DNA from: Frigoribacterium sp. Leaf8
Lineage (GTDB): Bacteria; Actinomycetota; Actinomycetes; Actinomycetales; Microbacteriaceae
Length of the DNA: 38,991 nt
Direction: 5' to 3'
Assembly (NCBI RefSeq): GCF_001421165.1
Contig: NZ_LMKB01000008.1
Span: forward strand, 117,194 to 156,184
In this document: piece by piece, positions 10,438-18,580 of the stretch
How positions within the stretch are numbered: the stretch's first letter is position 1
How the letters are laid out: each line of letters starts with the position of its first letter
Made by a program: the position numbers and the translations under genes
The notes under the pieces: model-generated
Database searches by the model: none
What the model was told of the DNA's origin: nothing
What the model saw: the letters and a program-made list of their open reading frames with translations, nothing else

Positions 10438-11397
10438 TCAGCCGCGGTGCAGCGTCTCGCGGGGGTACTCGCCGAACCGCTGCTGGTACGCGGCCGAGAA
10501 CCGGCCGAGGTGGGCGAAGGCCCAGTGTCGGGCGACGTCGGCGACGGTCGTGGCGTCCGGGGCGGCCGCCCGCAGCGCGTCGTGCACGCGCTCGAGGCGG
10601 ATCTCGCGCAGGTAGGCCGTGGGCGTGGTGTCGAGGTGACGACTGAACGCCTGTTGCAGCCCGCGCGGGGTGAGCCCGGCCTCCCGGGCGATGTCCACGG
10701 CCGAGATCGGCAGGTGGGCGCTGGCGTGCATGTATTCGACGGCGAGGCGGAGGCTCGCGTTGCGCGGTGCCAGCAACGCCGCGGGCATCTGGCTCGAGGT
10801 GTGGGCGAAGGTGTCGAGCAGGGCCACCGCGGCCATCCGGGCCATCTCGGTGCGCATCAGGTCGCTGGGCTCGCCCGAGCCCAGGTAGGCGCGTCCGATC
10901 AGACGGACCGTGGCGTGCCAGGCCTGCATCGCGGCGGACGAGACGGGGGCGGCGTGGTCGAAGCGGAGCGTGCCGGGCATGATGCCGTGCTGCTCGGCCG
11001 CGACCTCGTCGACGACCGACTTGGAGAGGTGGAGCAGGCTCTGGTTGACGTCCTCGGTGGTGAACTCGAAGTCCCGCCCCTCGGGGAAGAGGATCGGTCG
11101 TCCGACGGCTCCGGCCACCTCGTCGCGACCGTTGTCGATCGTGGAACGCCCGTCGAGCAGCCAGTGGACGACGTGCTCGTCACCCGCGGCCGCCTGCCCG
11201 TCGACGCGACCCATGAACATCGTCGACCGCAGGGTCATGGCCCCGTCGCCGACGATGGTGTGGCGGAACGAGAAAGGGGCCTCGGTGGGAGCGACGCGGA
11301 AACCCCGGCCGTTGTACCCGGCCTGCAGGATGTCGACCGCCTCGTCGAGATCGCGCCCCCGCGCGTCGAAGCGCATCTTGTCGTCGCGGGCAGCCAT
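10438..11397 (-). CDS. AraC-family transcriptional regulator
   Basis: 319 residues. The N-terminal two thirds resemble the AraC-binding-like domain that senses ligand or promotes dimers, and residues about 225-319 hold the AraC HTH pair (ISAVDIAREAGLTPRGLQQAFS and TTVADVARHWAFAHLGRFSAAYQQRFG). The ending GEYPRETL matches the classical AraC C terminus. I chose ATG 11397. No clear ribosome site precedes it, and AACAAT lies 8 nt upstream. Longer in-frame forms up to 11565 are possible but would overlap the peroxidase start. It is divergent from the peroxidase gene. The effector and targets are unknown. Confidence 0.85.
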   Translation of the reverse strand: MAARDDKMRFDARGRDLDEAVDILQAGYNGRGFRVAPTEAPFSFRHTIVGDGAMTLRSTMFMGRVDGQAAAGDEHVVHWLLDGRSTIDNGRDEVAGAVGRPILFPEGRDFEFTTEDVNQSLLHLSKSVVDEVAAEQHGIMPGTLRFDHAAPVSSAAMQAWHATVRLIGRAYLGSGEPSDLMRTEMARMAAVALLDTFAHTSSQMPAALLAPRNASLRLAVEYMHASAHLPISAVDIAREAGLTPRGLQQAFSRHLDTTPTAYLREIRLERVHDALRAAAPDATTVADVARHWAFAHLGRFSAAYQQRFGEYPRETLHRG

Positions 11398-11502
11398 CTC
11401 AGCGAATTGTTGCACGCACTCCAAACCCCGCACCAGTCGATCCCAGGGGGGTTGACAGTCGCTCGGCGACGTGCCTGAGGGCCGGCTCGCAGCGGGCGGG
11501 CC

Positions 11503-11508
11503 TACGGT
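11503..11508 (+). promoter_or_regulatory. -10 hexamer of the leaderless glutathione peroxidase gene
   Basis: TACGGT, 7 nt before the ATG at 11516, with no ribosome-binding sequence between. The shared gap 11398-11515 also contains TTGACA at 11452-11457, but that is about 45 bp from this hexamer and so cannot be its -35. Confidence 0.5.
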
Positions 11509-11515
11509 CGGACCC

Positions 11516-11998
11516 ATGACGCTCGACGACATCACCCTGACCACGATCCGCGGCGAGTCCACCACGTTCGGCGCCTACGCCGACAAGGTCGTGATGGTCG
11601 TGAACGTGGCCTCCCGCTGTGGCCTCGCGCCCCAGTACGAGAAGCTCGAGGCGCTGCAGAAGCAGTACGGCGAGCAGGGCTTCACGGTGCTGGGCTTCCC
11701 CAGCAACCAGTTCTTCCAGGAGCTCTCGAGCGGCGAGGCCATCGAGGAGTACTGCTCGGCGACCTGGGGCGTGACCTTCCCGATGATGGAGAAGGTCAAG
11801 GTCAACGGTCGGGGTGAGCACCCGCTCTACACCGAGCTGAAGAAGGCCACCGATGCCGACGGCAAGGCCGGCCGCGTGAAGTGGAACTTCGAGAAGTTCG
11901 TGATCACGCCCGGCGGCGCCGTGCACCGGTTCCGTCCGACGACCGAGCCCGACGCCCCCGAGGTCGTCGCGGTGATCGAGGAGGCGCTGGCCGGCTGA
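11516..11998 (+). CDS. Glutathione peroxidase family protein (thiol peroxidase)
   Basis: 160 residues. NVASRCGLAPQY has the peroxidatic Cys35 in place of selenocysteine. FPSNQF supplies Gln65 and VKWNFEKF the Trp and Asn of the catalytic tetrad. EEYCSATWGVTFPM carries Cys80, the resolving Cys of the thioredoxin-dependent subgroup. It probably reduces hydroperoxides with thioredoxin or mycoredoxin in the cytoplasm. The true start is ATG 11516: the leaderless TACGGT is 7 nt upstream, and the open frame continuing upstream has no homology. It is divergent from the AraC-type gene and convergent with the signal peptidase fusion. Confidence 0.9.
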   Translation: MTLDDITLTTIRGESTTFGAYADKVVMVVNVASRCGLAPQYEKLEALQKQYGEQGFTVLGFPSNQFFQELSSGEAIEEYCSATWGVTFPMMEKVKVNGRGEHPLYTELKKATDADGKAGRVKWNFEKFVITPGGAVHRFRPTTEPDAPEVVAVIEEALAG

Positions 11999-12017
11999 GC
12001 AGACCCGCTGCGGTCGC

Positions 12018-13496
12018 TCAGTGGCCGGCCGCGTACCGGGCCTGCACGGCCGAGGCGCTCTGGGCCGAGTTGTTGTAGATCGTCGTGCCGTCGACCGAGC
12101 CGACGAAGTAGCCGTTGGTCGGAGCCGACGGCAGCCCGCTGAGCGGGGCGTAGCCGACCCGCCAGTAACCGGTGGCCGTCTGCACGGTCTTGTTCGTGCT
12201 GTCGGTGACGACGGCGACGCCGTCGACGTAGACCACCGTGCTCGTGCCCGAGAGGGTGGCGACCACGTGGTGCCAGGCGCCGTCGTTGTACGAGGCGGGC
12301 GTCGTCGTCGCCTTGGTCGTGGTCGTGGTGGGGCGCACGCCGAGGACGATCTTGCCCGCCGTGGTCAGGTACAGCGCGCGGTCGGCGGTCGTGTTCGTGC
12401 CGGTCTGTGCCGTCGTGAAGGCGGCCAGGGTGCCCCCGGCCGTGCTGGTCGTGCGGAACCAGGTCTCGATCGTGAAGGCGGCCTGGCCGGTGAGGTTGAC
12501 CGCGGTCGTGACCTGACCCGTGCCGTCGAGCTGCAGGTAGGGGCTCTGGTTGGTGGCGCACGAGCCGGCGACGAACGTCGCCCCGCCGCTCAGGGTGCCC
12601 ACTCGGGCGAACGAGCTGCCGTCGGTGGTGGTCGTGCCGGACGTCTCGTTGTACGGGAAACCGTACGAGGTCTGCGAGTTGTAGGTGTCCTGCAGGCAGT
12701 CGTAGTTCCCGGCACCGAAGCTCGACGTCGGGTTCCCGGTCGGGGCGGCGAACGCGGCGTGCGCGCCACCGGACACGACGAGGGTGAGTGCGAGACCGCC
12801 ACCGATCGCTGCCAGGCCGATCGCGCCTCCTGCGGTCCTCAGGCGACGGAGGCGCCGCTCGCGACGACGCTGGACGCGGCGGCCGGCGGGGGCGGTCACC
12901 CGAGGCGACGCGGGACGCTCGTCACGCAGCAGGTACCGGTCGTTGCGGCTGAGCAGGACGACGAGGATCAGCAGTCCGCCGGTGACCAGCAGGTGGCCGT
13001 ACTGGTGGGCCGCGGCCCAGACGAAGGGCGTTCCGACGTACGGCACGCGCAGGAACCCGACGCCGATGACGGCGCTGCGGTCGATCGGCGTCGAGTCGAC
13101 GCTCGGGTTGGCGTCGCCCTTGGTGACGATCTGCCCGGCCTGGCCGTTGTCGTGGTAGCGGTGCAGCCGCAGGTGCCCGGCCTGGTCGGGGTCGTCGAAG
13201 AGGAGGACCTGACCGCGGTGCACGTCGGACGCCGCCACGGGCTTCGCGACGACGACGTCGCCGGGGTGGATGCGGGGCTCCATCGAGCCGGTCATCACGG
13301 TCGTGGGGCTCCAGCCGAGGGCGGCGGGAGCGGCCGCGTAGACCATCAGGCCGAGCAGCGAGTAGAGCACGACGCGTGACGCGGTGCCGAGGGCCAGGCG
13401 CGTCCAGTCGAGCCACGGACGAGAGGCACCCAGGGGCACGGTGATCGAGGCCGCGGCCGCGGTGGTGGGCCGCAGCTTCAGGTCGATCGTGCTCAT
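12018..13496 (-). CDS. Signal peptidase I (archaeal/SipW type) fused to a secreted LamG-like domain
   Basis: 492 residues. A membrane helix (about 38-60) precedes the S26B signal peptidase domain: TGSMEPRIHPGD with Ser71, LRLHRYHD with His112 as the general-base candidate (bacterial LepB has Lys), and VTKGDANPSVD (126-130). A second helix lies at about 165-182. Then an Arg-rich stretch (RRVQRRRERRLRRLR), a hydrophobic helix (about 226-244) and AHAAFAAPTGNPTSSFGAG mimic a SipW-dependent signal peptide. Residues about 255-492 are a LamG/concanavalin-like jellyroll (FTIETWFRTTS, WHHVVATLSGTSTVVYVDG). The enzyme thus seems fused to a substrate of its own class. It lies downstream of the TasA-like gene on the same strand. 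The start at 13496 follows AGAGG. Confidence 0.85.
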   Translation of the reverse strand: MSTIDLKLRPTTAAAASITVPLGASRPWLDWTRLALGTASRVVLYSLLGLMVYAAAPAALGWSPTTVMTGSMEPRIHPGDVVVAKPVAASDVHRGQVLLFDDPDQAGHLRLHRYHDNGQAGQIVTKGDANPSVDSTPIDRSAVIGVGFLRVPYVGTPFVWAAAHQYGHLLVTGGLLILVVLLSRNDRYLLRDERPASPRVTAPAGRRVQRRRERRLRRLRTAGGAIGLAAIGGGLALTLVVSGGAHAAFAAPTGNPTSSFGAGNYDCLQDTYNSQTSYGFPYNETSGTTTTDGSSFARVGTLSGGATFVAGSCATNQSPYLQLDGTGQVTTAVNLTGQAAFTIETWFRTTSTAGGTLAAFTTAQTGTNTTADRALYLTTAGKIVLGVRPTTTTTKATTTPASYNDGAWHHVVATLSGTSTVVYVDGVAVVTDSTNKTVQTATGYWRVGYAPLSGLPSAPTNGYFVGSVDGTTIYNNSAQSASAVQARYAAGH

Positions 13497-13610: not shown

Positions 13611-14210
13611 TCAGCTGTTCTGGGCCTCCCAGGTGAGGCCGAGGCTTGCGGTGCCGCCCTGGGTCGTGTTGGGGGCGGTGTTCGAGACGGTGTAAGTCAC
13701 CTGGTAGGTGCGGGTCTCGGACGCAGTGCCGGTGGGGGCCCAGGTGCCGACGCCATTGGAGTAGTTGGTGTAGCTGGTGCCGAAGGCGGCCAGCGTGCCG
13801 TTGTAGAGGCTCGAGCCCGCCGAGAGCGGGGTGAAGCCGGTGCACGAGCCGAAGCCGCCGCCGGTGCCCTGCACGACGCTCAGCGTGATGTTCGACGCGA
13901 GGTTGTTGGTCGTGGCGGCGCCCGTCCCGTAGAGCTTGACGGCCGAGGCGAGCGAGCCCGTGCTGGTGACGGCGATGCAGTTGCTGCCGGTCTGGCCGGG
14001 CTTGAGGTTCGTGGCGGTGAAGAGCGCGGTGTTGCTGTCGTCGTCGGTCAGGGCGACGGTGCCGGCGGTCCAGTTGCTGGTGGGGTTGACCGTGGTCGAC
14101 GAGAAGGCCGAGTACGACGCCGTGGAGACGACGATGCCCGAGGCGACGAGGGCGGCGGGGATGGCGATCCAGGCGGCGATGCGGGCGATGCGGGGCGTGG
14201 GACGGGACAT
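13611..14210 (-). CDS. TasA/CalY-like protein with SipW-dependent signal peptide
   Basis: 199 residues. The basic N terminus, the hydrophobic stretch IAAWIAIPAALVASGIVV and then ASYSAFSSTTVNPTSNWTAG and TVALTDDDS match the SipW-cognate signal class. Cleavage is expected near residue 33. The mature region is rich in Thr, Ser, Asn and Gly, with a Cys pair (SNCIAV, FGSCTG) and no membrane segment. Relatives form biofilm fibres or surface proteins (TasA, camelysin). The ATG at 14210 has GGAG about 8 nt upstream. The signal peptidase fusion lies 114 bp downstream in the same direction and is the likely processing enzyme. Confidence 0.8.
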   Translation of the reverse strand: MSRPTPRIARIAAWIAIPAALVASGIVVSTASYSAFSSTTVNPTSNWTAGTVALTDDDSNTALFTATNLKPGQTGSNCIAVTSTGSLASAVKLYGTGAATTNNLASNITLSVVQGTGGGFGSCTGFTPLSAGSSLYNGTLAAFGTSYTNYSNGVGTWAPTGTASETRTYQVTYTVSNTAPNTTQGGTASLGLTWEAQNS

Positions 14211-14484
14211 GGTGTGCTCCAGGGCGAGAGGGGGGAAGGGGGATGTCGGGGGCCAGCCGGCGAGGTGATTCAGGGGCTTCGCCGGTGAGAAGCTCACCTC
14301 CCGAACCGTTCCGGTTTCGAGTGGTCGTTGTTCTCAAGTGGTACGACAATCAAATTACTTGGACTCCGAGAGGCACGCAAGGCGAACCATGTCCCCAGTG
14401 GTGGGGGTGTCACGATCGTCGAGATTCTTGTTGACTGAGCCGGTGCCATGGACGGCACGCCCACACGCGTCACGGAGGACCCCC
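14211..14484. promoter_or_regulatory. Divergent control region between the TasA-like and MarR genes
   Basis: GGTGAG (14284-14289) and CTCACC (14293-14298) form a perfect small hairpin in the expected leader of the TasA-like gene. The segment 14325-14365 is clearly AT-rich for this genome and holds TCAAGT (14334-14339) facing ACTTGGA (14357-14363), a weak inverted repeat of the type bound by MarR dimers. No promoter hexamer pair is convincing on either strand. Confidence 0.4.
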
Positions 14485-15033
14485 TTGCTCATCTCCCCAC
14501 CCCGGGCCGACCCCGGCCTCATCACCGGCCCCGGCCTCACGCCCGGCCCCGGCCTCACGCCCGACCCCGGCCTCGCCCCCGGCGACCTCGGCCGCCTGCT
14601 CGACTCGTTCCGCCTGTTGATGCTGAACCACTCGCGGGTGCTCGACCACCAGGGCGACCTCTTCGGGCTGGGCGACACCGACATCCGGTTCCTCTTCTAC
14701 GTGTGGGCCACCGGCGACCTGGTCACCCCGAAGCGGGCGGCCGAGCACCTCGACCTCTCGTCGGGTGCGATGACCAACCTCGTCGACCGCCTCGTCGACG
14801 CCGGGCACCTCGACCGGCGCCGCAACCCGGACGACCGCCGCAGCGTCATCGTCAGCCGCACGCCACGCGGCGTCGAGGTCACGACGGCCATCGCGAGCGC
14901 GTACGCCGCCGCGTTCGCCGAGGTCGTGCCGGCGTCGCGACACGGTGCCCTCGCCGACACGCTGCTCGACCTCGGCCGGGCGTTCGACCGCCACGGGGTC
15001 GGCACGCGCGACGCACCCCACGCCGCCGCCTGA
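14485..15033 (+). CDS. MarR-family transcriptional regulator
   Basis: 182 residues with the winged-helix MarR core: LGDTDIRFLFYVW, TPKRAAEHLDLSSGAMTNLVDRLVDAGHLDR (recognition helix) and NPDDRRSVIVSRTPRG (wing, with the conserved DDRR). The N terminus holds three PGL-centred repeats (PGLITG, PGLTPG, PGLTPD, PGLAPG) coded by repeated GGCCCCGGCCTCACGCCC-like DNA, an oddity outside the domain. I chose TTG 14485 because GGAGG (14474-14478) is 6 nt upstream. A longer frame starting further upstream has no ribosome site. It is divergent from the TasA-like gene, its most likely target besides itself. Confidence 0.85.
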   Translation: MLISPPRADPGLITGPGLTPGPGLTPDPGLAPGDLGRLLDSFRLLMLNHSRVLDHQGDLFGLGDTDIRFLFYVWATGDLVTPKRAAEHLDLSSGAMTNLVDRLVDAGHLDRRRNPDDRRSVIVSRTPRGVEVTTAIASAYAAAFAEVVPASRHGALADTLLDLGRAFDRHGVGTRDAPHAAA

Positions 15034-15106: not shown

Positions 15107-15946
15107 CTAGGGGATGAGGCGGCGCAGGCGTGCGGCGTCGGCCAGGTCGGCCCGGAAGCGGTCGAGCGTCGACAGCGTGTAGAGCCCGTCGATCTGCTGG
15201 TCGACCCAGAGCTGGTGGATGCGCTTGAGGTCGGCCTGACGGCTCTTCCAGCCGATGCCGTCGATCACGGCCATGACGGTCTGTCGGGGCAGCCGCACGT
15301 CGGCCATCTCCTCGATCTCGCGGACGGCGTCGGTCAGCTTCGAACCGGTCGAGTCGAACCCCTTCGCCGCGACCACGATGGCGGGGTCCTGCGCCGAGGG
15401 GATCACCAGGTCGCACGGCGCCGTGCGGTTCGCCCGGCCGGTGAACCGCGTCCGCGTGCCGCAGGCGAGTCCGAGGTCACGGGCGATGGCCTCGATCTCG
15501 TCCTCGAGCCGCCGACCCGACACCCCGGCGCGGATCGCCGACGCCCGGGTGCCGGCCCGGGCCGAGAGCAGGTCGCCGAAGTCGTACGTGCGGTGCCGCT
15601 GGGACGCGACGAGGCGGACGAGCTCGAACTCGTCGTCGAGGTGGGCGACCAGTTCGTCGGCCCGTCCCCGCGCGAGCGTCAGCCAGCTGGGGGTGTCGAA
15701 GGCGTGCCGCAGCGAGTTGCGCAGCTTCTCCTGCGACAGCCCGACGGCCAGGCCGAGGGCGGGCACCCACGCCGGGTGCTGCCGGGTCCACTCGGCGAGG
15801 TGGTCGCGGTCGACGACGGGCAGGTCGCCGAGGCTCGCCGCGGCCCGGCCGAGGTCGGTCGCCGCGGCCGACGGCGCGGTCGGGTCGACGTGCGGGGTCA
15901 TGCGGCCGAGCGAGGCGACGTACTCGTCGAAGGTGGGGATCGTCAC
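15107..15946 (-). CDS. Probable type II restriction endonuclease
   Basis: 279 residues. It is coupled to the DNA methyltransferase by a 4-bp GTGA overlap, which is the main evidence for its role. The C-terminal part reads CDLVIPS (Asp179), then AIVVAAKGFDSTGSKLTDA (Lys195), as in PD-(D/E)xK nucleases of the DpnII/MboI type, with the TGSK motif following the catalytic Lys. The usual acidic residue two positions before Lys is Ala193, so a Glu such as Glu151 or Glu209 may take over, or the site is defective. The end, IDGLYTLSTLDRFRADLADA, is typical of this group. The recognition site is unknown. Confidence 0.7.
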   Translation of the reverse strand: MTIPTFDEYVASLGRMTPHVDPTAPSAAATDLGRAAASLGDLPVVDRDHLAEWTRQHPAWVPALGLAVGLSQEKLRNSLRHAFDTPSWLTLARGRADELVAHLDDEFELVRLVASQRHRTYDFGDLLSARAGTRASAIRAGVSGRRLEDEIEAIARDLGLACGTRTRFTGRANRTAPCDLVIPSAQDPAIVVAAKGFDSTGSKLTDAVREIEEMADVRLPRQTVMAVIDGIGWKSRQADLKRIHQLWVDQQIDGLYTLSTLDRFRADLADAARLRRLIP

Positions 15947-17109
15947 GGTCGGTCCCTCCCGACGAAGACGTACTCGGTGGCCGCGGTGCGGGTCGCCGCG
16001 CGGTGCGTACCGAAGCTGTAGGTGTGGTCGACCACGCGCACCTCGACGTGCGGCTTGACCGTGCGCATCAGCTGCTCGATGCGCTCGCGGCTCGGCACGG
16101 CGTTCGACGAGTACGACAGCACGAGCGCCCCGGCGTCGGCGAACTGCTCGAAGGTGCGCACGAGGGCGTCGTCGACCGTGCGCGGGTAGGCGAACGGCGT
16201 GAACAGCTTGGCGATCTTCTTCGTCTTGGTCTCGGTCATGATCGTCTGCCCCCGCCAGTACACGGCCAGCCCCTGCAGGAAGTGGTACCGCTTCATGTAG
16301 TCCGCGTCGTCCCGAGGAGGCGCGTAGGGCGGATCGAGGTACACCAGGTCGGCGGGTGGTCGCCCGAGGTCGGCGACGTCGCCCTCGACGGCCTCGTGCG
16401 CGAGCCCGTCGTCGAACACCGTCGCACCGTAGGCCCGGACGGCCGCCCGGAACTGCTCGGCCATGGTCAGCCGCAGGTCGCGGCGTCCGTCGTCGTACCG
16501 CGCCCCGGTGAAGGTGAAGACGCCCCGGGGCTGCTTGCGCGCCGCGGCCAGCACGAGGCCCGCGATCGCGAGGTCGCGCTCGGCACCGACGAGCCGGTCG
16601 ACGTGCGACCAGGCCGAGTCGAGGAACGCCCGGTCGTCGGCCGAGAAGAACACGCCGTCGAAGGTGCGGCGGACGACGTCGCGGTCGTCCGCGGGCGGGC
16701 CGCAGATCTCGTCGACGAGCTCGTCGGACAGCGTCGTCGACCCGTTGACGACGGAGGCGCGGGCGATGACCGCGGGGAACGCCAGGAAGTCGTTGCTCAC
16801 GACCTGGCGACCTTCCGCCTTCATCAGGTACGAGACGACGCCGGACCCGCTGAAGGCGTCGATCGCGGTCGAGGGCCGCACCGCGCCTCCTCGGCCTCCG
16901 GGTTCGCGGCTCGACACGGGCGCGACGCTCGAGAAGACGTCGTGCAGCACGGGCAGCAGCGCGTACTTCGAGCCCATGTAGCGCAGGCGGGGGAAGGCGG
17001 CGACGCGGGCGGGCACGGGGGCGGCCCCGGTCGCCGTGGCGGCCCCGGTCGCGGAGGACTGCCTCACGGTGGGCCGGCTCGCGGCGGAGGGCACGAGCTC
17101 GACGGTCAC
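15943..17109 (-). CDS. D12-class DNA adenine N6-methyltransferase
   Basis: 388 residues. LRYMGSKYALLP and TAIDAFSGSGVVSYLMK (FSGSG at 86-90) form the SAM-binding part, and LVYLDPPYAPP (DPPY 259-262) is the catalytic motif of amino-methyltransferases. The order of motifs is that of the alpha/D12 class (Dam, DpnM). It protects host DNA from the coupled nuclease. The N-terminal 40 residues are low-complexity. Start GTG 17109: CAGACT lies 6 nt upstream, suggesting a leaderless transcript. The recognition sequence cannot be read off. GATC is common in this window, so avoidance gives no support for it. Confidence 0.85.
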   Translation of the reverse strand: MTVELVPSAASRPTVRQSSATGAATATGAAPVPARVAAFPRLRYMGSKYALLPVLHDVFSSVAPVSSREPGGRGGAVRPSTAIDAFSGSGVVSYLMKAEGRQVVSNDFLAFPAVIARASVVNGSTTLSDELVDEICGPPADDRDVVRRTFDGVFFSADDRAFLDSAWSHVDRLVGAERDLAIAGLVLAAARKQPRGVFTFTGARYDDGRRDLRLTMAEQFRAAVRAYGATVFDDGLAHEAVEGDVADLGRPPADLVYLDPPYAPPRDDADYMKRYHFLQGLAVYWRGQTIMTETKTKKIAKLFTPFAYPRTVDDALVRTFEQFADAGALVLSYSSNAVPSRERIEQLMRTVKPHVEVRVVDHTYSFGTHRAATRTAATEYVFVGRDRP

Positions 17110-17128
17110 CGGGCAAGTCTGCCGCACG

Positions 17129-18580
17129 TCAGCGGTCGGACGGGCTCCGGGTGCGGGAGTCGAGGTCGACGCGCTCGGCGTGCGGGACGCTGCCGGTGGT
17201 CGTGCCGGCGATGCGCAGGCTCTCTTGTCGCAGCTCGAGCTGGGCGACGACGAGCGCCGCGAGGTCGGCGAGGTTGGCGACCTGCTCGTCACTGGCCGTG
17301 CCCGGCTCGCGACCGATCACCGAGAGGGTGCCGATCGTGTGGCCGTCGCGCCGGGTGAGGGGCACGCTGACGTAGAACCGCATGCCGAGCGGACCGGTGA
17401 CCAGCGGGCTCGACGCCACGCGACGGTCGGTGGCGGCGTCCTCGATGACGAGCGGCTCGGACGAGTGGACGGCCCCGAGCGAGAGGTCGATGTGCCGGGC
17501 GATGTCGCCCACGGCGGGGTCGTAGTGGGTCGTGAACCACGTGCGGTCGTCGTCGATCACGGTCGCCAGGGCGATGGGCGCCGAGAACAGGCGGGCCGCC
17601 ATGGCGGTGACGCGGTCGAGCGCCTCGTTGGGCAGGGTGTCGAGCACCTCGCTGTGGTCGAAGGGCTCGGTGTCGCCCCCGCGCATCGAGCCGTCGCCGG
17701 TCGACAGGTCGCCCACGGCGTCGCGGTGCTCGGTCGTCTCGGTGATGACCACGTCGCGCATCATCGCGACGAGCTCGGCCCGCGTCGGCCGCTCGGCGGG
17801 GTCCCGGCGGGTCATCGCCCGCAAGGCGTGACGCCAGTGCTCGGGCAGCGGGTCGGGCAGCACCGGGTCGCGCGACAGCCGGGCCACGGCCGACTCGACG
17901 AGCGACCCCGGGAACTCGCGTCGACGCGTGAAGCACTGCAGCAGCACGAGGCCGAGGCTGTAGACGTCGCTCGGGGGGCCGACCTGGCCGCCCACGGCCT
18001 GCTCGGGGCTGAGGTACGCCGCGGTGCCGGTGGTGACGCCCTCGGCGGTGAGCCGTTCGACGTCCTCGGTGAGGGCGATGCCGAAGTCGGCGAGCTTGGC
18101 CCGGGCGCGGGCCGCCTCGTGGTCGCCGTAGTCGACGAGCAGGATGTTCGACGGCTTGATGTCGCGGTGCACCACCGCGTGGCCGTGGATGTAGTCGAGC
18201 GCCTCGGCCATGTCGTAGCCGATCTCGGCGATGTGCCTCGGGGCGAGCGCGCCGTGCCGCAGACGGTCTTCGAGGTTGAGGCCGGCGATCAGCGGCATCA
18301 CGAGGAAGCGTTGCGGACCGTTCGGCCCCTGCTCGACGCCGGCGTCGAAGAGACCGACGAGGCCGTGGTGCTCGAGGCTCGACAGCACGCCGAGCTCGGC
18401 CTCTTGTCGGGCCGGGTCGACCATCGCGCTGTGGAAGACCTTGATCGCGACCGTGCGGTTGAGGCTCTCGTCGACGGCCTTGTAGACGGTCGCCATGCCG
18501 CCGCGGCCCACGACGGACTGCAGGCGGTAGCGCTCGGCGAGGACGCGATCGAGCGCGTCGTCCTGCTGTGGCGCGGCCAT
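17129..18580 (-). CDS. Serine/threonine protein kinase with C-terminal GAF domain
   Basis: 483 residues. Residues about 18-285 are a complete Hanks-type kinase: GRGGMATVYKA (glycine loop 25-30), Lys47 in VAIKVF, VVHRDIKPSN (138-143), LADFGIAL (165-167) and GTAAYLSPEQA. Residues about 320-465 form a GAF domain (LFSAPIALATVIDDDRTWF, RFYVSVPL, IGTLSVIG), probably a small-molecule or redox sensor. There is no membrane helix and no PASTA repeat, so it should be a soluble signalling kinase. ATG 18580 follows a GAGGGGGAGG run. The substrate is unknown; the neighbours give no clear clue. Confidence 0.92.
   Translation of the reverse strand: MAAPQQDDALDRVLAERYRLQSVVGRGGMATVYKAVDESLNRTVAIKVFHSAMVDPARQEAELGVLSSLEHHGLVGLFDAGVEQGPNGPQRFLVMPLIAGLNLEDRLRHGALAPRHIAEIGYDMAEALDYIHGHAVVHRDIKPSNILLVDYGDHEAARARAKLADFGIALTEDVERLTAEGVTTGTAAYLSPEQAVGGQVGPPSDVYSLGLVLLQCFTRRREFPGSLVESAVARLSRDPVLPDPLPEHWRHALRAMTRRDPAERPTRAELVAMMRDVVITETTEHRDAVGDLSTGDGSMRGGDTEPFDHSEVLDTLPNEALDRVTAMAARLFSAPIALATVIDDDRTWFTTHYDPAVGDIARHIDLSLGAVHSSEPLVIEDAATDRRVASSPLVTGPLGMRFYVSVPLTRRDGHTIGTLSVIGREPGTASDEQVANLADLAALVVAQLELRQESLRIAGTTTGSVPHAERVDLDSRTRSPSDR

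What the first reader, a model, noticed from the sequence alone, without database searches (positions are those of the whole stretch)
12018..13496. Signal peptidase fused in cis to a SipW-type substrate with a LamG domain
After the S26B peptidase domain comes an Arg-rich stretch, a helix and AHAAFAAPTGNPTSSFGAG. This mirrors the signal region of the neighbouring TasA-like protein (ASYSAFSSTTVNPTSNWTAG). So one polypeptide appears to hold protease, signal peptide and secreted LamG domain. Self-cleavage could release LamG and leave the active protease in the membrane. I know of no described protein of this layout.
Basis: partly seen in the sequence, partly recalled or inferred. Interest (0 to 1): 0.75.

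Follow-up and report, generated by a model that had tools for sequence, protein, structure and literature searches.

The report
Signal peptidase carrying its own cargo
In many soil and plant bacteria of the phylum Actinomycetota, the membrane enzyme that probably trims a biofilm-fibre protein carries on its own tail a swappable cargo with the same kind of trimming site, which suggests that one molecule both processes the fibre subunits and supplies the piece that starts or tips the fibre.

Summary
The gene at 13496->12018 (minus strand) encodes one 492-residue chain: SipW/ER-type signal peptidase (Ser71, His112, Asp128), second TM helix, Arg-rich linker, third TM helix ending AHA|AF, then LamG. 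It is not an assembly join: peptidase-LamG fusions recur in Frigoribacterium, Curtobacterium, Arthrobacter, Nocardioides and others. In related chains the LamG is replaced by an FN3-like domain, Ig domains, a GH26 domain, a whole TasA-like domain, or only about 20 residues. What stays is the third helix plus a SipW-type cleavage motif. Ala247 is the only invariant position between residues 160 and 292 in 29 aligned proteins. Within the genus the mature passenger was exchanged as a cassette whose left edge lies about 2-4 codons after the predicted scissile bond. The upstream partner is a TasA-like fibre subunit (best PDB fold match: TasA fibre). The passenger's first mature residues resemble that subunit's own mature N-terminus, the donor strand in Bacillus TasA. 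Most likely the peptidase matures the TasA-like protein in trans and frees its own tail, which joins a fibre end as TapA does. Cleavage, its cis or trans character, and fibre docking are inferred, not shown. Passenger-free relatives exist; over the wider peptidase family they are the majority.

The parts
13611..14210 (-). TasA-like fibre subunit gene (199 aa), upstream partner; signal ASYS|AF
   Evidence: TasA fibre 8aur is the best PDB fold match, E 9.6e-5; a relative lies upstream of 78 of 85 peptidase ORFs
14061..14108 (-). first 16 mature residues of the TasA-like protein (A35-G50), presumed donor strand
   Evidence: low-confidence, unstructured in the AF2 model; equivalent of TasA donor strand 28-38 (PMC9674648, passages)
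12018..13496 (-). fused gene: SipW-type signal peptidase plus LamG passenger, 492 aa
13320..13418 (-). TM helix 1 (residues 27-59)
   Evidence: AF2
13032..13319 (-). catalytic domain (residues 60-155) with Ser71, His112, Asp128
   Evidence: S71, H112, D128 and D134 identical in 29 of 29; the A2 profile aligns these motifs with GSMEP, HR and GDNN of SEC11C/SEC11A
12945..13001 (-). TM helix 2 (residues 166-184)
12831..12944 (-). Arg-rich linker (residues 185-222), presumed cytosolic
   Evidence: sequence
12765..12830 (-). TM helix 3 / signal-peptide hydrophobic core (residues 223-244)
12750..12764 (-). predicted cleavage motif A245 H246 A247 | A248 F249
   Evidence: A247 29 of 29, residue 249 F 26 and Y 3
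12708..12755 (-). donor-strand-like segment A248-G263
12027..12665 (-). LamG passenger (residues 278-490); C267 (just before it) and C313 occur together
   Evidence: PF13385; AF2 pLDDT above 90 over much of it; both Cys present in 24, both absent in 5 of 29
12000..12744 (-). exchanged passenger cassette relative to L037, L039 and L040
   Evidence: two-breakpoint fit

Best explanation
A two-gene fibre operon. The first gene encodes a TasA-like donor-strand fibre subunit. The second encodes its SipW-type signal peptidase, whose own C-terminus is an extra substrate: a signal helix, a SipW-type cleavage site, a donor-strand-like N-terminus and an exchangeable head (LamG here). The peptidase would cut the TasA-like precursor in trans and its own tail at A247|A248, in the same chain or between neighbours in the membrane, and stay behind as an ordinary membrane peptidase plus a leftover third helix. 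The freed passenger would donate its new N-terminus to the first TasA-like subunit and, being a complete fold without an acceptor groove, sit at one fibre end as initiator and as tip or base adhesin. This is TapA's role in Bacillus, here made in fixed 1:1 ratio with the peptidase. Shown by computation: the architecture, catalytic residues in place, conserved cleavage motif, cassette exchange next to the cleavage site, linkage to a TasA-like gene, and shared N-terminal segment. Inferred: cleavage, its cis or trans character, donation of the strand, adhesion. My estimates: cleavage by a SipW-type peptidase about 0.85; cleavage by the same chain about 0.5; fibre-end docking about 0.45.
For: Catalytic residues identical in 29 of 29 and aligned with SEC11C/SEC11A, E 7.2e-11. 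A247 is the only zero-entropy column between residues 161 and 291, F249 next. Small-x-small-x(1-2)-aromatic pattern right behind TM3 in 42 of 42 LamG and 33 of 33 FN3-like tails, 12 of 26 other tails, 37% of 2102 control windows. An aromatic at P2' impairs E. coli LepB while TasA is cut by SipW (PMC10269814, passages). TasA-like gene upstream of 78 of 85 peptidase ORFs; its model best matches TasA fibre 8aur. Cassette left edge at window 12744 or 12743, 2-lnL interval 12749-12743 for L037, 12748-12742 for L040, a wide 12780-12721 for L039; right edge 12000. Passenger swapping: LamG or FN3-like, Big_7 or GH26, TasA-like domain or bare peptide. Own-operon similarity of the N-terminal segments 21.2 against 16.4 +/- 0.8 for other operons. 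TasA's donor strand is residues 28-38 and TapA's N-terminus resembles it (PMC9674648, passages); a strain secreting only TapA 44-57 forms proper biofilms, and TapA can only sit at the filament start (PMC10151520, passages).
Against: No cleavage, secretion or fibre data. Phylogeny alone can raise own-operon similarity. 22 of 93 tails have their best matrix window elsewhere: 8 in the main group (6 FN3-like, 2 LamG) and 14 distant tails; of 33 FN3-like tails 27 are on site but only 9 of these beat all 200 shuffles. In 22 of 30 FN3-like operons the residue before the aromatic is Pro, so the exact scissile bond differs or is uncertain. Fusion is not essential: in the class survey 98 of 138 peptidase ORFs have a tail under 60 residues, and relatives of the main group without passenger exist (L130, L131, L134; 11 of 24). 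The TasA-like fold match is partial (TM 0.45 on the query, rmsd 12.2) and the sequence-profile match to TasA is weak (E 0.09).
Confidence: 0.55

Rival explanations
1. Cleaved cargo without fibre role: the passenger is simply a secreted or surface protein (lectin, Ig domains, enzyme) that borrowed the SipW signal; the shared post-cleavage residues are part of the recognition signal or inherited from a TasA-like 5' end.
For: A GH26 domain as passenger fits a secreted cargo. LamG genes also occur as separate genes directly behind a different SipW-type peptidase, with their own SipW-like signal (L099, L103, L071, L106, L110, L025, L032). What SipW itself needs beyond the cut was not found in the passages I read, so a long recognition signal is not excluded.
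Against: Similarity runs to about P16' in unrelated passenger folds. In four genomes of one genus the passenger is little more than the segment itself, and another passenger is a TasA-like domain (L260).
Confidence: 0.25
2. No cleavage: TM3 is a permanent anchor and the LamG domain sits beside the active site as a docking module or fibre base.
For: The hydrophobic segment is long enough to be an anchor. An uncleaved donor segment at the membrane could anchor a fibre.
Against: An anchor needs no invariant Ala at P1 and aromatic at P2'. Passengers are exchanged right behind the site while the recognition residues stay with the peptidase.
Confidence: 0.13
3. The tail is cut by the housekeeping signal peptidase or by another SipW copy, so the cis fusion has no role in cleavage and only couples expression.
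For: The genome encodes a second fused copy (L002) and two further weaker peptidase matches (L005, L006).
Against: An aromatic at P2' impairs LepB cleavage (PMC10269814). The catalytic residues are kept in 29 of 29 aligned fused chains.
Confidence: 0.07

Closest known systems
Bacillus subtilis tapA-sipW-tasA operon
   Same: Dedicated ER-type signal peptidase, TasA-fold fibre subunit, and a minor SipW-processed partner whose N-terminus resembles the TasA donor strand (PMC9674648, PMC10151520; passages).
   Different: There SipW and TapA are separate chains and TapA's folded part is one Ig domain; here the partner is fused to the peptidase and its folded part is swappable (LamG, FN3-like, Big_7, GH26, TasA-like, or none).
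Bacillus cereus TasA/CalY/CapP matrix system
   Same: SipW processes fibre subunits and an assembly factor (PMC13082335, passages).
   Different: No fusion in the passages read; CapP is described there as an oligomerising chaperone-like protein whose C-domain anchors it to the cell wall.
Archaeal bundling pili and thread filaments
   Same: Donor-strand filaments, some structurally related to TasA (stated in PMC9674648); thread subunit 7pnb is among the weaker fold matches of the TasA-like protein (rank 5, E 0.014).
   Different: I saw no mention of a peptidase-cargo fusion, but saw these papers only as a search listing and as citations.

Membership tests
ER/archaeal-type signal peptidase I (S26B, SipW-like) | Ser-His(-Asp) catalytic residues | tested here: met
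   S71, H112, D128 in 29 of 29; aligned with the same motifs of SEC11C/A by profile. The single-sequence alignment had placed the HR motif three residues off.
ER/archaeal-type signal peptidase I (S26B, SipW-like) | TIGR02228 curated cut-off | tested here: met
   65.2 bits against 51.85
Bacillus SipW equivalog (NF046067) | NCBIfam curated cut-off | tested here: not met
   46.6 bits against 190; so SipW-type, not SipW itself
ER/archaeal-type signal peptidase I (S26B, SipW-like) | cleaves signal peptides | not testable with these tools
   needs an enzyme assay
Laminin_G_3 (LamG) | Pfam gathering score | tested here: met
   65 bits against 27.6; fold matches include neurexin LNS
SipW-class substrate | signal helix with small P3/P1 and aromatic P2' | tested here: met
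TasA/camelysin (neighbour 13611-14210) | PF12389 gathering score | tested here: not met
   18.4 bits against 22.5; 27 of 36 relatives match at E up to 0.1, best 6.7e-7
TasA/camelysin (neighbour 13611-14210) | TasA fold | tested here: met
   8aur rank 1 (E 9.6e-5), 5of1 rank 2 (E 0.006) by Foldseek, TM 0.45 and 0.41; the same two entries top the profile search at E 0.09
TapA | homologous TapA sequence or fold | tested here: not met
   the passenger here is LamG; TapA itself was not searched for; no claim of membership
TapA | donates its N-terminus to TasA | not testable with these tools
   only sequence resemblance of the segment was tested

The most novel reading that the evidence does not exclude
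Actinomycetota use a self-loading fibre system: the signal peptidase is its own substrate and ships an interchangeable head whose freed N-terminal strand plugs into a TasA-like fibre, so each peptidase molecule makes exactly one fibre initiator or tip. The heads (lectin, Ig domains, glycoside hydrolase, another subunit, or only a strand peptide) are swapped as cassettes cut next to the cleavage site.
Probability: 0.4. Interest if true: 0.87.

Novelty: new variant of a known kind. Interest (0 to 1): 0.77.

Why it matters
A peptidase and its own class of substrate in one chain, kept across families while the cargo changes, makes it testable whether a signal peptidase can act on itself and whether this sets the ratio of fibre initiator to enzyme. 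It offers a reason why these SipW-type peptidases sit next to TasA-like genes outside Bacillus, predicts TasA-like fibres with interchangeable heads in soil- and plant-associated Actinomycetota, and would show donor-strand fibres with exchangeable ends in Gram-positives. Public annotation names the three fused plasmid copies only by their passenger, so the architecture is easily overlooked.

Tried and rejected
Assembly join: rejected; fused ORFs occur in many separate assemblies. Dead protease: rejected on sequence. LamG as the defining partner: rejected; the passenger is exchangeable. FN3 identity rests on one hit just under the gathering score (L066, 23.9 against 25; the other seven proteins scanned gave none), so I write FN3-like. 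A CBM5/12 match in L250 and L255 is below cut-off and I do not claim it. Botulinum and tetanus receptor-binding domains head the Foldseek list at 10-16% identity; this reflects a shared jelly-roll fold only and I draw nothing from it. One search anchored the TasA-like segment on the wrong residue; I discarded it and redid it. In one search the passenger anchor of L124 is still off (too early) and that of L128 is a Met; both rows were kept. In one search the printed 70 of 85 used a 400-nt limit; eight more lie at 409-418 nt in the same table, hence 78. One search used residue 314 for the second Cys; the right one is C313. The profile of TasA-like signals hit only 33 fused ORFs; 15 of those (near-copies included) exceed the best of 1989 background ORFs (12.9 bits), the rest do not. 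The 71 on-site tails include L218, not a SipW-type passenger, and L059, whose window lies partly in the helix. In the second, distant fused clade the matrix finds nothing at the site, so the shared strand is shown for the main group only. Promoter scan: none found. Tree: quick method, one substitution matrix, 57 of 159 inner branches open; the two fused clades are starred, finer branching is not relied on.

Full report
WHAT IS THERE. The named stretch is an open reading frame on the minus strand, 13496 to 12018, 492 residues. NCBIfam TIGR02228 (signal peptidase I, archaeal type) covers residues 42-179 above its cut-off; the Bacillus SipW model matches far below its own. Pfam Laminin_G_3 covers 325-477. 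Three helices are predicted at 27-59, 166-184 and 207-241, in line with hydropathy, the last after an Arg-rich stretch. By the positive-inside rule (general knowledge) the linker is cytosolic and both the catalytic domain and LamG are outside. C267 and C313 are both present in 24 and both absent in 5 of 29 relatives, which suggests a disulfide and so an exported passenger.

ACTIVE SITE. A profile of 21 peptidase domains matches human SEC11C (E 7.2e-11) and SEC11A and aligns the GSMEP, HR and GD-N motifs; the earlier single-sequence alignment had the HR motif three residues off. In the alignment of 29 fused LamG proteins, S71, H112, D128 and D134 are the same in 29 of 29. The peptidase part therefore looks active; that SEC11 and SipW use Ser and His is recalled and, for ER-type enzymes in general, stated in PMC10269814 (passages).

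THE CLEAVAGE SITE. Between residues 161 and 291, A247 is the only column without variation and F249 the next most constant (F 26, Y 3). Read as TasA is read, this is A245-H246-A247|A248-F249, with small P3, Ala P1 and aromatic P2'. In three Curtobacterium proteins of the alignment the aromatic is one residue later. Outside these 29, relatives of the genome's second copy have Ser at P1 (L018, L020). Among 101 non-redundant tails with a third hydrophobic segment, the permissive pattern small-x-small-x(1-2)-aromatic follows it in 42 of 42 LamG, 33 of 33 FN3-like and 12 of 26 other tails, and occurs in 37% of 2102 control windows of equal length. A matrix made from TasA-like signals alone puts its best window there in 71 of 93 tails: 40 of 42 LamG, 27 of 33 FN3-like, 4 of 18 other. 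Of the on-site ones 26 LamG, 9 FN3-like and 2 other beat all 200 shuffles of their own tail. An aromatic P2' impairs the E. coli housekeeping enzyme, and TasA is processed by SipW (PMC10269814, passages); the P3-P4' region named there was tested for blocking LepB, not for recognition by SipW.

THE PARTNER. Upstream lies a 199-residue protein (14210 to 13611) with signal ASYS|AF. Its AlphaFold2 model has as best PDB match the TasA fibre 8aur (E 9.6e-5, TM 0.45), then TasA 5of1 (E 0.006); pilins and an archaeal thread subunit follow at weaker scores. Pfam PF12389, the camelysin family, matches it below cut-off, and 27 of 36 relatives at E up to 0.1. A relative lies on the same strand within 420 nt upstream of 78 of 85 peptidase ORFs in the first set of loci, strains held in two collections counted twice. 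The seven others are four distant or unfused peptidases (L005, L034, L035, L110), two at contig ends (L075, L093) and a second tandem copy (L098). The genome holds a second such pair (L002/L116).

DISTRIBUTION AND PASSENGERS. Of 60 relatives, 44 had some match to the query, LamG-only and peptidase-only matches included. Of 394 genomes of the class, 90 had a peptidase match at E up to 1e-12. I fetched 129 loci; they hold 138 peptidase ORFs, 98 with a tail under 60 residues, 6 with 60-99, 34 with 100 or more. Of the 18 with a profile score of at least 115, 14 carry a passenger (12 LamG, one Big_7 array, one unassigned) and 4 do not; of these four, L133 has its LamG in another frame behind a low-complexity stretch. 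Of 396 genomes of the order, 24 including the window's own had a match at E up to 1e-33. Of the 24 loci new to me (L250-L271, L273, L274), 13 carry a passenger or a signal-plus-peptide tail; 11 have none that I recognised in the first 200 tail residues, two of them (L269, L271) with long Pro-rich tails. Passengers seen: LamG, FN3-like, Big_7 Ig domains (L124, L247, L248, L258; a single one in L263), GH26 (L246, PF02156, E 1.4e-12), a full TasA-like domain (L260, 98 bits), and in the four genomes of one genus that matched (L252, L253, L254, L256) only about 20 residues beginning A-F, S-F or T-F. The tree of 162 peptidase domains puts all its LamG and FN3-like fusions in one starred clade of 75 rows; eight rows there are classed as without passenger, three of them probably broken or cut (L068, L095, L133). 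A second starred clade of 7 rows holds further fusions, so fusion arose or was lost more than once.

CASSETTE EXCHANGE. Against L037, L039 and L040 the DNA of the fused gene is 90-91% identical up to about window 12744, 64-65% from there to 12000, and 94-96% beyond (profile). The left edge has a 2-lnL interval of 12749-12743 (L037), 12748-12742 (L040) and a wide 12780-12721 (L039). The predicted bond lies between 12756 and 12755. So the recognition residues stay with the peptidase, and the mature passenger up to just past the stop codon is the exchanged unit. The three comparisons probably reflect one event. L036 (close throughout), L038 and L046 (more distant throughout) do not show the drop.

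THE DONOR-STRAND LINK. In TasA the residues right behind the SipW cut (28-38) form the strand that completes the next subunit, with F29, I32 and F39 in hydrophobic contacts; TapA's N-terminus resembles it and may give the first strand (PMC9674648, passages). TapA has a complete Ig fold, is far rarer than TasA, and a strain secreting only TapA residues 44-57 forms proper biofilms (PMC10151520, passages). Here the passenger starts AFAAPTGNPTSSFGAG and the TasA-like protein AFSSTTVNPTSNWTAG. Over 76 operons (91 rows before removing identical segment pairs, near-copies kept; four ORFs left out for lack of a partner or motif) the score of 13 residues against the own-operon partner is 21.2, against other operons 16.4 +/- 0.8, against shuffled letters -0.4 +/- 0.8. 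It holds for LamG (24.8 / 18.8 / -0.5) and FN3-like passengers (16.3 / 14.5 / -0.2; p 0.015). Shared ancestry of operons contributes to the own-operon excess. Both segments are at low confidence in the models, as expected of a free donor strand, though this alone proves nothing. The bare-peptide tails are what one would expect if the strand is the essential part.

JUDGEMENT. That the chain is real, conserved and built for SipW-type cleavage between A247 and A248 is well supported. That the passenger is a TapA-like fibre end is the most economical reading of the shared strand, the bare-peptide variants and the TasA-like passenger, but is untested. Whether cleavage is within one chain cannot be told from sequence. 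No paper describing such a fusion showed up in the nine search listings; subscription journals and preprints are not in that library, so priority is not proven.

Noticed in passing
L002 / L116 (same genome, contig 5): A second complete pair, TasA-like (55% identical) plus fused peptidase-LamG (44% identical), in the window's own genome.
   Followed up: partly
L252, L253, L254, L256: In four genomes of one genus the peptidase tail ends after the signal helix and about 20 residues: a passenger reduced to a strand-like peptide.
   Followed up: partly
L246:4157-5620: Plasmid copy whose passenger is a GH26 glycoside hydrolase domain; the annotated protein starts inside the catalytic motif, just behind the Ser.
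   Followed up: partly
L260:1-2748: The passenger is itself a TasA-like domain (98 bits, profile positions 5-198): peptidase fused to a fibre subunit.
   Followed up: partly
L099, L103, L071, L106, L110, L025, L032: LamG genes with their own SipW-like signal sit directly behind a different SipW-type peptidase gene: the split form of the same pairing.
   Followed up: partly
window 14338-15033 (+) and 10438-11565 (-): A MarR-family regulator is divergent to the operon and an AraC-type regulator lies nearby; the gene convergent to the fused gene is a glutathione peroxidase.
   Followed up: no
window 15107-17292 (-): A D12-class adenine methyltransferase followed on the same strand by an unassigned ORF that could be its restriction partner; not tested.
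   Followed up: no
L098:5830-9706: Two tandem fused peptidase ORFs in one Microbacterium testaceum contig; the second lacks the SMxP motif in its frame and may be broken.
   Followed up: no
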